Source: Clavibacter michiganensis (GTDB lineage: Bacteria > Actinomycetota > Actinomycetes > Actinomycetales > Microbacteriaceae). From it: DNA of 64,000 bases. Within the stretch, counting starts at the first letter, position 1, and every line of letters starts with the position of its first letter. Both the position numbers and the translations under genes were made by a program. The notes beneath the pieces were generated by a model. That model was not told where the DNA came from and searched no databases. It saw nothing but the letters and a program-made list of their open reading frames with translations. Positions 3,439 to 22,153 of this stretch are shown here, one piece after another. The stretch is taken from positions 2,232,001-2,296,000 of the forward strand of contig NZ_JAFBBJ010000001.1 in NCBI RefSeq assembly GCF_016907085.1, given 5' to 3'.

Positions 3439-4569
3439 ATGCGCGTGACGGTCGAGGACGCCGCGACCGCGACCGGCGGTGCGACCCGGGCCGACCGGAT
3501 CCGCGCGGCGCTCGTCGACCTGCTCGTGGCCGGGGTCGCCACCGCGGCCTCCTTCACGTTCCTCGCCGACGCGGAGTCGCCGTGGGATGCGGTCGCCGGC
3601 GTCGTCGCGTGCCTCGGGTTGCTGCTGCGCCGGCGCTGGCCGTGGCTCAGCCTCCTCGCGGCGATGCCGGCCTTCTACATCGGCATCGCGTACGTGCCGC
3701 TCGTGGTCGCCCTCTTCGACCTCGGCCTCTCGCGCGCCGCGCGCTGGCGGGTGGGCGTCGCGACAGGCGCGTCCCTCGTCGCGTACCTGCTGCCGATCGC
3801 GCCGCCGGAGGACCTGCAGTCGGTGGTCGGGCCCCTCGTGGACGCGACGATCTACACGGTCGGGCCCGCGCTCCTCGGCGCGTTCCTCCTTGAGCGGCGG
3901 ACGGCGGCGGCGCAGCTGCGCGAGCTGCGGGAGGCGCAGACCCTCGGGCAGCGGCAGGCCGCGGAGGTCGCGCTCGCCCGGGAGCGCGCGGTGCTGGCGC
4001 GGGAGATGCACGACGTGGTGTCGCACCAGGTCAGCCTCATCGCCGTGCAGGCGGGGGCGATGCAGGTCGGCGCGGCGGACGAGCGCTCCCGGGAGGCCGC
4101 GCGCACGATCCGCGGGCTCAGCACGGTGACGCTCGAGGAGCTGCGCGGCATGGTCGAGGTGCTCCGCGCGGCGGGCGGCGAGCGGCGGGAGCTCGCGCCG
4201 CAGCCGACCCTCCGGGACGTGCCGGCGCTCGTGGCGGCCAGCGGGATCCGTGCGACGACCGACATCGACCTCCCCGCCGACCTCCCCGCGGCCGCCCAGC
4301 GCGCCGTCTACCGCACGGTGCAGGAGGGCCTCACCAACGCGCGGAAGCACGCGACCGGGGCGGCCGTGCGGATCACCGGGCGGCTCGACGCGGGCCACGT
4401 GCTGCTCGAGGTCGAGGCGGGCCGGGCGACGCTCCCGCTGCTCGACCTGCCGAGCGGGCGGCACGGGCTCACCGGCCTGCGCGAGCGCGCCCAGCTGCTC
4501 GGCGGGAGCCTCACGGCCGAGACGCGGCCCGACGGATCCCACGTGCTGCGGCTGCGATTCCCGCTCTGA
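3439..4569 (+). CDS. NarL-type sensor histidine kinase with degenerate ATP lid region
   Basis: 376 aa: hydrophobic N-terminal sensor segments (about 22-150), a coiled linker, and a HisKA_3 domain with phospho-acceptor H191 in REMHDVVSHQ. The N box (TVQEGLTNARKHA) and C-terminal GLTGLRERAQLLGGS are recognizable. The DxGxG (G1) box normally found between them is absent: the corresponding stretch reads VEAGRATLPLLDLPSG. The Asp of this box contacts the adenine of ATP in GHKL kinases, so ATP binding may be weakened or altered. It partners with the response regulator immediately upstream; the regulator-first order is common in actinobacteria. Confidence 0.88.
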   Translation: MRVTVEDAATATGGATRADRIRAALVDLLVAGVATAASFTFLADAESPWDAVAGVVACLGLLLRRRWPWLSLLAAMPAFYIGIAYVPLVVALFDLGLSRAARWRVGVATGASLVAYLLPIAPPEDLQSVVGPLVDATIYTVGPALLGAFLLERRTAAAQLRELREAQTLGQRQAAEVALARERAVLAREMHDVVSHQVSLIAVQAGAMQVGAADERSREAARTIRGLSTVTLEELRGMVEVLRAAGGERRELAPQPTLRDVPALVAASGIRATTDIDLPADLPAAAQRAVYRTVQEGLTNARKHATGAAVRITGRLDAGHVLLEVEAGRATLPLLDLPSGRHGLTGLRERAQLLGGSLTAETRPDGSHVLRLRFPL

Positions 4570-19835: not shown

Positions 19836-19969
19836 GCGCCCACGCTGGCAGGCCGCGCCGCCGCGGGCAAGCGAGCCGGCGACGGCGGCGGGCTGCATCG
19901 CCGGCGGACGGAGCCCGGAGCGGGCGTGCTGCCGTCGGGGGAGGCGGTGCGCCGCCCCCTCGTCGGGCG

Positions 19970-20160
19970 CTAGCGGAGGACGCGCAGGTCGGTCGCGGCC
20001 TCGATCGCCGTGATCGAGGTGAAGGCGCTGCGGTCCGCGCCGCCGCGGGGGATGTTGCCGTAGTGGATCCCGTACGCGGTGTTGCCGTAGTACCAGGGTC
20101 CGCCGCTGTCGCCCTCCTGGGTGATGTAGCCGTCGACCTGCCAGAGGTTCGCGTAGGACG
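19970..20160 (-). pseudogene. C-terminal fragment of a chymotrypsin-like secreted serine protease
   Basis: The last about 63 codons of a serine protease: SYANLWQVDGYITQEGDSGG then PWYYGNTAYGIHYG and a terminal DLRVLR. The GDSGGP motif holds the catalytic Ser, but the His and Asp portion and the signal peptide are gone. Coding similarity stops at about 20160, where an opposite-strand Rhs fragment begins. Clavibacter carries many Chp/Pat-1/Ppa-type secreted proteases of this fold that affect host interaction; membership is inferred. It is almost certainly non-functional. Confidence 0.7.
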
Positions 20161-20512
20161 CTTCACGCAGTACGACCCGAGCGGTCAAGAAAAAGCCCCG
20201 TACGCGTACGGTAACAACAATCCAGTTATCAACCTCGACCCTTCGGGCAATAACGCCTATACGGTTTTCGATACTGTCATGTTCGCCATCGATCTCGCAT
20301 ACAATGGAGCGTCGGCTTACAGAACCGGTACTGTCAAGGGTTACGCAGAGGCAGCGGTGAGCATGGGTGTTGGTGCTATAGTTGGATCCCTGTGCTCAGG
20401 AATCATTACTGGGTTCGCGCCAACCCTTATGGGATCGTTGACGGCCGCTATCGGATGCTCGGCGTTGTCCAGCGTCGTTGGAAACTTGGTTTCCACCGGT
20501 GAAGCCTTGTAA
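20157..20512 (+). pseudogene. Orphan Rhs C-terminal tip 1 (no start; core deleted)
   Basis: The open frame begins with the last part of an Rhs-associated core (GRFTQYDPSGQEKAPYAYGN then NPVINLDPSG) and continues into a tip of about 85 residues. The tip is hydrophobic and small-residue-rich (AVSMGVGAIVGSLCSGIITG, LTAAIGCSALSSVVGNL). The region is visibly lower in GC than its surroundings, as is usual for Rhs tips. There is no start codon or signal; the left edge abuts the protease fragment. The tip could be a membrane-acting toxin, or only the translocation part of one. A small membrane protein follows. Confidence 0.65.
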
Positions 20513-20533
20513 TCTACACAGAACGGAATTCCT

Positions 20534-20761
20534 TTGTCACAAGACCGAAAACAACACCTAAGCCCCGAGATTGGAATCGGATTTGGTGTCGTACTAATCC
20601 TTTTTTCTGTATTTGTTTTTGCGCTACCCGGGTCGTACGAATCGTCGACTCGAGGTTGGGCGGGAGCTCTCGGCATTCCAATCTGGATAGTCTGTATTCC
20701 TGTTCTACTCCTTGGAGTCTGGTGCATCTGGACAGGCATGCGTCAGCGCAAAGCGAAATAA
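20534..20761 (+). CDS. Small two-helix membrane protein, candidate immunity to tip 1
   Basis: 75 aa from a TTG start (GGAA about 8 nt upstream): MSQDRKQHLSPEIGIGFG, then two hydrophobic helices (about 14-33 and 48-67) and a basic tail MRQRKAK. It lies 21 nt after the Rhs tip and shares its low GC. In Rhs and other polymorphic toxin loci the gene directly after the tip encodes immunity, and membrane-targeted toxins usually have membrane immunity proteins. No family is recognized; the role is inferred. Confidence 0.55.
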   Translation: MSQDRKQHLSPEIGIGFGVVLILFSVFVFALPGSYESSTRGWAGALGIPIWIVCIPVLLLGVWCIWTGMRQRKAK

Positions 20762-20767
20762 CTTGAT

Positions 20768-20807
20768 AGCGATGGCCCGTCAGGACCTCTGGCGGGCCAT
20801 CGCTTTT
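20768..20807 (+). terminator. Strong intrinsic terminator after tip 1 cassette
   Basis: A perfect 12-bp stem, AGCGATGGCCCG (20768-20779) and CGGGCCATCGCT (20793-20804), ends in a TTTT run (20804-20807). It closes the first tip/immunity cassette and separates it from the second Rhs fragment. Confidence 0.85.
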
Positions 20808-20811
20808 CCAT

Positions 20812-21897
20812 GTGTCGGCCGACGTCGCGTATTCGTTCGCGAAGGATGGCGTGGACACGCTTGACATCCAGACCCGCACCAGCGGCAAGGAGGAGGGCGT
20901 CCCGGCCGGCGCGGTCACCGCGTACCAGTACGACTCGCAGAGTCGCCTGACGGTCGCCGAGGAGAGGGTGGGCGGCAACACCAACGCGATGTGGGCTTAC
21001 GGCTACGACGCCGCCGGCAACCGAACCTCGCAGAACCGCTCCGGCAACACGGGCGGCACGCAGAACACCGCCATCGACTACGGCTACAACGCGGCGAACC
21101 AGCTCACCAGCACCAGCGCGGACACCACCCAGTGGGTCTACGACGCCGCCGGCAATCAGGTCAAGAACGGCATCACCGGTGTCGTCGCGACCTACGGCGA
21201 CCGCGGACAGGTGCAGAGCATCGGTGCGACCAACTTCGCCGCGTTCGGAGAGGGAAACACCGACACCCAGAGCGCCACGGGCGGACGATCCTTCTCCAAC
21301 TCGATCCTCGGATTGTCGCGACAGACGAACACGTCCGCCAGCCTCGTGCAGAACTACAGCCGCACGCCTTCAGGTGAGGCCGTGGGGTTCCGGATCTCGT
21401 CCAGCCACTATTACGTGACCGACCTCCTCGGCTCCGTCGTGGGTATGTTCTCCGGTGCGGGCATCTGGGAAGGTGGCTACTCCTACAGCCCGTACGGCGA
21501 AGAGCGCGCTAGCTCGACGAACAGCCCCGTGGCGCTGAACTCGCTGCGCTACATCGGCGGCTATCAGGAGTCCGAGAACCTGTACAAGCTAGGCGCGCGC
21601 TACTACGATGCATCGCTGGGCCGCTTCACGCAGATGGATCCGTCCGGTCAGGAACCTCAGCCATACGCATACGCGGCATGCAACCCCGTTGGTAACATCG
21701 ATCCAAGCGGCCTCAGCTGCGCCGGAGCAGTTGCTGGCTTCATCTCGGCCGCAGGTCTGCTACTGATAACAGCAGGCTTTGCGCTCACAACCCCCGTCGG
21801 TGCGATCGCCACGGCCATCACGGCCGGTGGCCTCCTCCTCGAAGGGGCTGGCGTTTGGGCTACCTGGCAGGAAGTCAAGGAAGAGTGTGATGTATGA
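20812..21897 (+). CDS. 5'-truncated Rhs/YD-repeat protein with hydrophobic C-terminal tip 2
   Basis: 361 aa from a chance GTG directly after a terminator; no signal peptide or N-terminal Rhs domains. YD repeats (YGYDAAGNRTSQNRSGN, WVYDAAGNQVKN) lead into the conserved core end: RYIGGYQESENLYKLGARYY, DASLGRFTQMDPSGQ, NIDPSG. The tip (about 60 aa) is a pair of hydrophobic Gly/Ala-rich helices (AGLLLITAGFALTTPVGAIA, ITAGGLLLEGAG) ending WQEVKEECDV. In intact Rhs toxins the core forms a shell and the tip is the toxin. This copy is probably an orphan donor cassette or a remnant. It overlaps the next gene by 4 bp (ATGA). Confidence 0.75.
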   Translation: MSADVAYSFAKDGVDTLDIQTRTSGKEEGVPAGAVTAYQYDSQSRLTVAEERVGGNTNAMWAYGYDAAGNRTSQNRSGNTGGTQNTAIDYGYNAANQLTSTSADTTQWVYDAAGNQVKNGITGVVATYGDRGQVQSIGATNFAAFGEGNTDTQSATGGRSFSNSILGLSRQTNTSASLVQNYSRTPSGEAVGFRISSSHYYVTDLLGSVVGMFSGAGIWEGGYSYSPYGEERASSTNSPVALNSLRYIGGYQESENLYKLGARYYDASLGRFTQMDPSGQEPQPYAYAACNPVGNIDPSGLSCAGAVAGFISAAGLLLITAGFALTTPVGAIATAITAGGLLLEGAGVWATWQEVKEECDV

Positions 21898-22097
21898 GCA
21901 ATCTGACTCCGTCGTCCAATAAAGGAAGAGTCGCTCAGAGCGTCGTCGTCATATTGGCTGCAATCGCTGTGTTGCTTGCCATCACAGGGTTCATGGGTGG
22001 CAACATCCTGATCGGGGGCATCTTCTCGGCAGTGGCAGCCTTGCTGGCCGTAGGCGGTTACTTCGCCGTACGCGACATCGGCCGCAGGGAGCTCTGA
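21894..22097 (+). CDS. Small two-helix membrane protein, candidate immunity to tip 2
   Basis: 67 aa, MSNLTPSSNKGRVAQSVVVI, with two hydrophobic helices (about 15-33 and 38-57) and a charged end RDIGRREL. Its ATG overlaps the Rhs tip stop, the tight coupling usual for toxin/immunity pairs. It shares architecture and size, but not obvious sequence, with the 75-aa protein after tip 1. Function is inferred from position. Confidence 0.55.
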   Translation: MSNLTPSSNKGRVAQSVVVILAAIAVLLAITGFMGGNILIGGIFSAVAALLAVGGYFAVRDIGRREL

Positions 22098-22115
22098 CTT
22101 CGATCGAGGCTCTGG

Positions 22116-22153
22116 CGAACGGCCCCGTGGACTTGTGTCGGCGGGGCCGTTCG
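22116..22153 (+). terminator. Terminator hairpin after tip 2 cassette
   Basis: CGAACGGCCCCG (22116-22127) pairs perfectly with CGGGGCCGTTCG (22142-22153), 12 bp with a 14-nt loop, 18 nt after the stop of the small membrane protein. The T-run is weak. Confidence 0.7.

What the first reader, a model, noticed from the sequence alone, without database searches (positions are those of the whole stretch)
20157..22153. Two orphan Rhs tip/immunity cassettes with membrane-type tips
Sequence shows two Rhs core ends (both carry GRFTQ-DPSGQ), each followed by a short hydrophobic, Gly/Ala-rich tip. After each comes a 67-75-aa two-helix membrane protein and then a perfect-stem terminator. Rhs loci are known to store displaced tip/immunity pairs. 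Tips this small and wholly hydrophobic, paired with tiny membrane proteins, differ from the usual nuclease tips and suggest pore-forming or depolarizing toxins with membrane immunity. The two tips share architecture but not obvious sequence.
Basis: partly seen in the sequence, partly recalled or inferred. Interest (0 to 1): 0.78.

Follow-up and report, generated by a model that had tools for sequence, protein, structure and literature searches.

The report
Orphan Rhs membrane-toxin tips with immunity
Two leftover ends of large secreted bacterial weapon proteins, each a tiny greasy domain paired with a small membrane protein, belong to a widespread and seemingly undescribed actinobacterial family of what look like miniature membrane-attacking toxins and their antidotes.

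Summary
Window 20156-22153 carries two Rhs C-terminal modules, each with a small hydrophobic tip (87 and 61 aa), a small two-helix membrane partner (75 and 67 aa) and a strong hairpin. They are remnants. In 2 of 17 other genomes of the genus the same slot holds Rhs genes, and one of these (G011) has an intact 1144-aa Rhs frame, with a signal peptide, ending in tip B with partner B. In the window, sequence between the middle of a protease gene and the GRFTQ codons of the first Rhs is missing. The wider find is a lineage of short Sec-type Rhs proteins in Microbacteriaceae, Streptomyces and other actinobacteria. Of 120 distinct tips, 119 are at most 118 aa, 93 have exactly two cysteines and 117 an even number. 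A small membrane-protein ORF follows in 101 of 117, against about 8% at control positions. Partners co-vary with tips beyond core relatedness. None of 74 tip sequences matched Pfam. Most likely these are disulfide-closed, membrane-depolarising antibacterial toxins with membrane immunity proteins, working like Tse5/Tsi5 but Sec-exported and much smaller. Toxicity was not tested. The kind is known; the lineage appears to be a new variant.

The parts
19970..20157 (-). 3' remnant of a chymotrypsin-like serine protease gene; homology to relatives stops at 20157
   Evidence: (PF00089, 16.5 bits, below its cut-off)
20156..20248 (+). Rhs core end A (GRFTQYDPSG-X17-DPSG), all upstream core missing
   Evidence: (TIGR03696 partial, 26.7 bits, below its cut-off of 32.5)
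20249..20512 (+). tip A, 87 aa, hydrophobic, C-x20-C, five glycine-zipper matches, plus stop
20534..20761 (+). partner A, 75 aa, two TM segments (predicted immunity protein)
20768..20804 (+). terminator-like hairpin A
20812..21711 (+). Rhs core fragment B, 300 residues of YD repeats and Rhs core without its N-terminus
21712..21897 (+). tip B, 61 aa, hydrophobic, modelled as a helical hairpin with Cys3 and Cys59, plus stop
21894..22097 (+). partner B, 67 aa, two TM segments (predicted immunity protein), 94% identical in G011
22116..22153 (+). terminator-like hairpin B

Best explanation
These are two stored (orphan) toxin-tip/immunity modules of a Sec-exported Rhs toxin lineage. In intact relatives an about 1140-residue Rhs protein is exported, an aspartyl-protease plug (DPSG-X17-DPSG) frees the C-terminal tip, and the tip, a short Gly/Ala-rich helical hairpin closed by one disulfide, inserts into a competitor's membrane and depolarises it. 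The small two-helix membrane protein from the next gene protects the producer. In this genome tip A (low G+C) was placed in front of the older tip B, and a deletion then removed the shell, leaving the tips without a carrier but the immunity genes intact. Shown: gene order, synteny, deletion junction, signal-peptide-like N-termini in intact relatives, family-wide tip and partner features, tip-partner co-variation, purifying selection on tip B and partner B. Inferred: order of acquisition, autocleavage, disulfide formation, membrane insertion, toxicity, immunity, transcription of the remnants.
For: G011 homologue with the same tip and partner. Rhs genes between the same protease and right-flank sequences in G011 and G015, and near the protease stretch in G012. 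93 of 120 distinct tips have exactly 2 Cys, 17 have 4; same-length core stretches have 0 in 85, 1 in 34, 2 in 1. TM-bearing ORF downstream in 101 of 117 against 192 of 2399 and 65 of 870 controls. Partial tip-partner correlation given core 0.49, reached by 0 of 2000 permutations. Glycine-zipper matches in all 119 tips: 326 against 200 (sd 14.6, highest 240 in 300 shuffles). Hydrophobic N-terminal stretch in 63 of 66 full-length frames (no control run for this measure). Precedents: Tse5/Tsi5 (PMC9637101, PMC10684867, passages), EsxX (PMC12744356, passages), a Bacillus teneurin-like tip that inhibited growth only when given a signal peptide (PMC13018210, sections 8 and 9).
Against: No toxicity data. 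The hydropathy window calls a TM helix in only 67 of 120 tips, and in 10 of 21 tips of long Rhs as well. Tip B has one GxxxG and no strict glycine zipper; counted per tip, zipper presence (93 of 119) is only modestly above shuffles (mean 82.3, sd 4.3, highest 94). Both tip models are low confidence (mean pLDDT 62). A profile of 24 tips found no PDB chain. Even Cys counts occur in 21 of 21 long Rhs tips too, so they mark exported tips in general. 18 of 119 tips had no TM partner under the standard rule (three of these for lack of downstream sequence), 8 none under a relaxed rule.
Confidence: 0.72

Rival explanations
1. The hydrophobic tips are not toxins but C-terminal membrane anchors or assembly tails that hold the Rhs shell on the producer's surface, with the small membrane protein as a receptor; variety reflects self recognition or adhesion.
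For: Hydrophobic C-terminal tails and membrane partners fit anchoring; animal teneurins use related shells for adhesion (PMC13018210 abstract).
Against: 119 tips fall into 74 clusters after one conserved core end; displaced tip/partner modules lie beside main genes; tips and partners change together beyond core relatedness; a soluble-looking 4-Cys tip class uses the same slot.
Confidence: 0.12
2. Tips act on the envelope by another route (for example blocking a membrane enzyme or a cell-wall step) and the partner guards that target: toxin/immunity, but no pore.
For: No direct evidence of pores; tip B lacks a strict glycine zipper; some partners have one TM helix only.
Against: No conserved polar or catalytic residue stands out: apart from the two Cys no column is invariant in the 24-tip or the 6-tip alignment (both sets were picked for having two Cys).
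Confidence: 0.2
3. In this genome the modules are decayed debris without any present function (this can be true together with the main reading of the lineage).
For: No carrier of this lineage remains in the genome; fragment A begins at a deletion junction.
Against: Tip and partner frames are open; tip B and partner B show dN/dS 0.04 and 0.07 against G011, though most of that history may predate the deletion. Immunity genes could still protect against G011-like rivals.
Confidence: 0.35

Closest known systems
Tse5/Tsi5 (Pseudomonas aeruginosa T6SS Rhs toxin)
   Same: Rhs shell, aspartyl dyad before the tip, membrane-inserting tip, immunity protein with two predicted TM segments (PMC9637101, PMC10684867, passages)
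   Different: T6SS delivery with PAAR-like N-terminus and 149-aa tip; here a signal peptide in intact relatives and 61/87-aa tips with two Cys. The match of the G011 protein to the solved Tse5 chain lies in residues 568-725, the shell; that 1121-aa chain appears to be the shell alone, so tips were not compared.
Glycine-zipper LXG toxins EsxX, TelE, TspA (T7SSb, Bacillota)
   Same: Gly-rich membrane-depolarising or membrane-damaging C-termini; membrane immunity for TspA and for extracellular EsxX (PMC12744356, PMC10434224, passages)
   Different: LXG carriers and T7SSb, not Rhs; polytopic or soluble immunity; tip B lacks the motif
Bacterial teneurin-like proteins (BiTLP of Bacillus)
   Same: YD shell in a Gram-positive, hydrophobic tip that permeabilised cells when exported; almost all such genes have a further gene, thought to be immunity, next door (PMC13018210, sections 8, 9)
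   Different: Teneurin superfold of over 2100 residues, described as rare (abstract); no small two-Cys tip family in the sections read
WapA (Bacillus)
   Same: Gram-positive wall-associated YD-repeat toxin (named in a PMC10684867 passage)
   Different: Called distantly related there; its size and enzyme-type tips are recalled, from no call

Membership tests
Rhs polymorphic toxin/immunity locus | YD repeats and Rhs-associated core | tested here: met
   B: PF05593 9.1e-10, TIGR03696 71.3 bits over cut-off 32.5. A alone keeps only the core end: 26.7 bits, below cut-off
Rhs polymorphic toxin/immunity locus | Aspartyl dyad DPxG-X-DPxG before the tip | tested here: met
   DPSG-X17-DPSG in A and B; X17 form in 99 of 119 family members
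Rhs polymorphic toxin/immunity locus | Variable tip after conserved core with co-varying downstream gene | tested here: met
Rhs polymorphic toxin/immunity locus | Tip toxic, neighbour protective | not testable with these tools
   no bench data
Tse5/Tsi5 pore-forming family | Sequence relation of the tip to Tse5-CT | tested here: inconclusive
   G011 protein matches the solved Tse5 chain only in the shell, and that chain seems to lack the tip; a 24-tip profile finds no PDB chain
Tse5/Tsi5 pore-forming family | T6SS-type (PAAR-like) N-terminus | tested here: not met
   G011 and G012 proteins: signal peptide, DUF6531, RHS repeats, no PAAR model at E 0.01
Tse5/Tsi5 pore-forming family | Two-TM immunity protein | tested here: met
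   predicted by hydropathy, both partners; protection not tested
Glycine-zipper toxins | GxxxGxxxG-type motif | tested here: inconclusive
   five matches in tip A, none in tip B; 93 of 119 tips against 82.3 (sd 4.3, highest 94) in shuffles

The most novel reading that the evidence does not exclude
Actinobacteria carry a specialised Rhs lineage in which the shell serves as an export and delivery capsule for bacteriocin-like peptides: hydrophobic hairpins closed by a single disulfide, too insoluble to be secreted bare, matched by dozens of dissimilar small membrane immunity proteins; genomes that lose the shell keep tips and immunity genes as a stored antidote set.
Probability: 0.5. Interest if true: 0.78.

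Novelty: new variant of a known kind. Interest (0 to 1): 0.62.

Why it matters
If true, it adds a large, unannotated set of very small antibacterial membrane toxins with matched antidotes (119 tips in 74 clusters; no Pfam match in the 74 sequences scanned) in Gram-positive soil and plant bacteria. It offers a simple model of how a Sec-exported shell can carry an insoluble peptide to a membrane, and it gives a directly testable case of immunity genes outliving their toxin.

Tried and rejected
Truncated enzyme tip: rejected for B because the G011 protein ends at the same residue. Chance ORFs: rejected by homologues and selection. Known domain: Pfam and NCBIfam gave no tip domain for the window's fragments and, for 24 tips, one weak glycine-zipper hit in one member at 0.0087. 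In the broad Pfam scan 0 of 74 tip sequences matched at E 0.001 (73 of the 74 cluster representatives, the 21-aa L080 tip left out, plus tip A). Of 62 partner sequences three Pfam models matched one member each (DUF4190 1.2e-15, Holin-X 0.00037, DUF4191 0.00088) and a PADLOC '2TM' effector model matched one (0.00034). Holin, DUF3165 and SLATT hints on the window's own partners are below their cut-offs.

Intact homologue of tip A: none found. Of 398 family genomes searched with fragment A, 13 others matched; most rows cover mainly the core end, seven run past residue 50 at 33-45% identity, and one (G377) covers residues 22-103 at 37%, E 5e-4. None of the listed DNA matches in the 17 other genus genomes covers query positions 1-656. 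A profile of 36 tips picked for Cys spacing 14-27 scored tip A 19.8 bits, against 11.5 for the best of 200 shuffles of tip A and 10.0 for the best of 300 shuffles of profile members: a weak family link. No fold search was run because both models have mean pLDDT 62. Literature: no description of this lineage in searches; subscription papers and preprints are not covered.

Rows dropped before counts: distinct tips only; core score at least 70 bits (31 of 151 set aside); one 380-residue frame (L089) dropped, giving 119; 3 of 120 lacked 500 nt downstream. Loci L001-L056 were not used. Tips are related by descent, so cluster counts are also given (71 of 74 mostly even, 60 of 74 mostly two Cys). A first control on long Rhs used stretches too short to hold every neighbour (3 of 20 with a TM neighbour); with longer stretches it is 5 of 20, and that figure is used. 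Tip definition near the core end differs by a few residues; counts are from 48 on.

Full report
Observation. Both modules are real. Fragment A starts at GRFTQ (20156) with nothing of the core before it; tip A is 87 aa and partner A 75 aa, from a TTG that the one database homologue found (P0006, 69% identity, six member sequences, JGI source) supports. Fragment B keeps 300 residues of Rhs core (20812-21711); tip B is 61 aa, and partner B (67 aa) overlaps its stop codon by 4 nt. Hairpins follow each partner, strong but not perfect. G+C is 54% and 49% in the A end/tip and partner, 65%, 63% and 58% in B core, tip and partner, and 74% in the window, so A looks like the later arrival.

History of the locus. 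The genome has no full copy of this lineage, only the two fragments and a distant 2293-aa Rhs frame. Of 18 genus genomes, this one included, 9 have a DNA match to the finding; two of these (G002, G010) match over about 32 nt only, six others (G003, G005, G011, G012, G015, G016) over 846 nt or more. G011 has a 1144-aa open frame ending in tip B (60 of 61 residues) followed by partner B (63 of 67). In G011 and G015 the protease stretch (window 19929-20157) and the right-flank sequence (from window 22312 on) lie on either side of Rhs genes; in G012 the protease stretch lies near an Rhs gene, but the right-flank match is on another contig. Left homology ends at window 20157 in all three, and base by base against G011 it ends there while the window goes on with Rhs codons. 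So sequence between mid-protease and GRFTQ of the first Rhs is gone. Homology of fragment B to G011 begins at 20812, after seven bases that follow hairpin A, as expected when a tip/immunity cassette is placed upstream of an older one. G015 shows the same order with an intact first frame (1147 aa) and a 380-aa second one.

The family. A core-end profile (A1, 15 rows) matched 46 of 398 Microbacteriaceae genomes at E 1e-10 (26 of 85 genera) and 111 of 394 genomes of the class (48 of 138 genera). Most listed rows in both score under 80 bits, many in frames over 2000 aa, so the close lineage is rarer than these totals. In named genomes 201 stretches were confirmed and the best 80 kept (79 loci: Clavibacter, Microbacterium, Cryobacterium, Salinibacterium, Streptomyces, Kitasatospora and others). 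From loci L057-L208 and the window 151 distinct tips were cut, 120 with a core score of at least 70 bits. Median length is 81; 119 lie between 21 and 118 aa. Cys counts: 7 with none, 3 with one, 93 with two, 17 with four. Core stretches of equal length: 85 with none, 34 with one, 1 with two. At the same Cys frequency 60.8 of 119 would be even and 30.6 would have two; observed 116 and 92. Of 74 clusters 71 are mostly even and 60 mostly two. Control: 21 tips from 20 stretches with Rhs frames above 2000 aa have median length 461, median hydropathy -0.28, a TM segment in 10 of 21 and a TM neighbour in 5 of 20; their Cys counts are all even, so evenness marks export, while small size, hydrophobicity and exactly two Cys mark this lineage. 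The 20 stretches were picked from the rows that one search listed, not drawn at random.

Partners. An ORF of 40-170 aa with a predicted TM segment starts within -30 to +120 nt of the Rhs stop in 101 of 117 cases (two or more segments in 67), against 192 (62) of 2399 random stops and 65 (22) of 870 ends of other long frames. Of 18 tips without one (three for lack of downstream sequence), 10 have one under a relaxed rule, for which no control was run, and 8 none. Similar tips have similar partners: 18 of 22 pairs with tip similarity above 0.6, none of 4951 pairs below 0.3; partial correlation given core 0.49, 0 of 2000 permutations. In between (0.4-0.6) partners were alike in 7 of 34 pairs, so some related tips have unlike partners.

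Mechanism. G011 and G012 proteins have RHS repeats, DUF6531 and Rhs core. 63 of 66 full-length frames have a hydrophobic N-terminal stretch and 62 an AxA-type site after it. The X17 dyad is found in 99 of 119; Tse5 has X19 and enterobacterial Rhs X18, and in Tse5 both Asp are needed for tip release (PMC10684867, passages). Tip B is modelled as a two-helix hairpin (2-24, 30-59), which could bring Cys3 and Cys59 together; tip A as three helices with Cys49 and Cys70 on either side of a turn; both at mean pLDDT 62, and no coordinates were measured. In the alignment of 24 tips the two Cys are the only invariant columns, but the set was picked for two Cys at that spacing. The reading is an exported, disulfide-closed hairpin that enters membranes, with a membrane partner as immunity. 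No step of the activity itself has been shown.

Comparison. Rhs pore formers (Tse5/Tsi5), glycine-zipper T7SS toxins (EsxX, TelE, TspA) and a Bacillus teneurin-like tip toxic only when exported make the kind known. Zhang et al. 2012 list two-TM toxin and immunity classes (PMC3482391, passages only). What appears new is a Sec-type Rhs lineage built around minimal two-Cys membrane tips, with no Pfam match for the 74 tip sequences tested, and not found in the literature searches named in Tried and rejected.

Noticed in passing
window 19970-20157: A chymotrypsin-like serine protease gene is cut off at the Rhs junction; the same stretch lies near Rhs genes in G011, G015 and G012.
   Followed up: partly
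L071:1812-8693 (own genome): A second Rhs frame of another lineage (2293 aa) with a long soluble-looking tip and a soluble-looking ORF downstream.
   Followed up: partly
L112, L116, L119 (Streptomyces): A four-Cys, mostly not TM-like tip class ending in YTF, with 42-52-aa one-helix partners sharing RPDGPSW.PY; another member (L133) has an unlike partner.
   Followed up: partly
L100, L140, L142, L096: A tip class without Cys (about 103-112 aa) with one-helix partners of about 41-65 aa.
   Followed up: no
L061 and L062: Gly-rich tips with two internal Cys, reminiscent of class II bacteriocins (recalled), each followed by a 33-39-aa one-helix ORF.
   Followed up: partly
L117: Three distinct tip modules in one Kitasatospora locus, an array of stored tips.
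   Followed up: no
L214:1501-1662 (G010): A weak relative of partner A (33% identity, E 0.008) with no Rhs motif in the fetched locus, perhaps a lone immunity gene.
   Followed up: partly
G011:C2:42148-42726: Against the window, the G011 right flank jumps from query 3462 to 3999 with no gap on its own side, so its glutaminase gene seems to lack about 540 nt.
   Followed up: no
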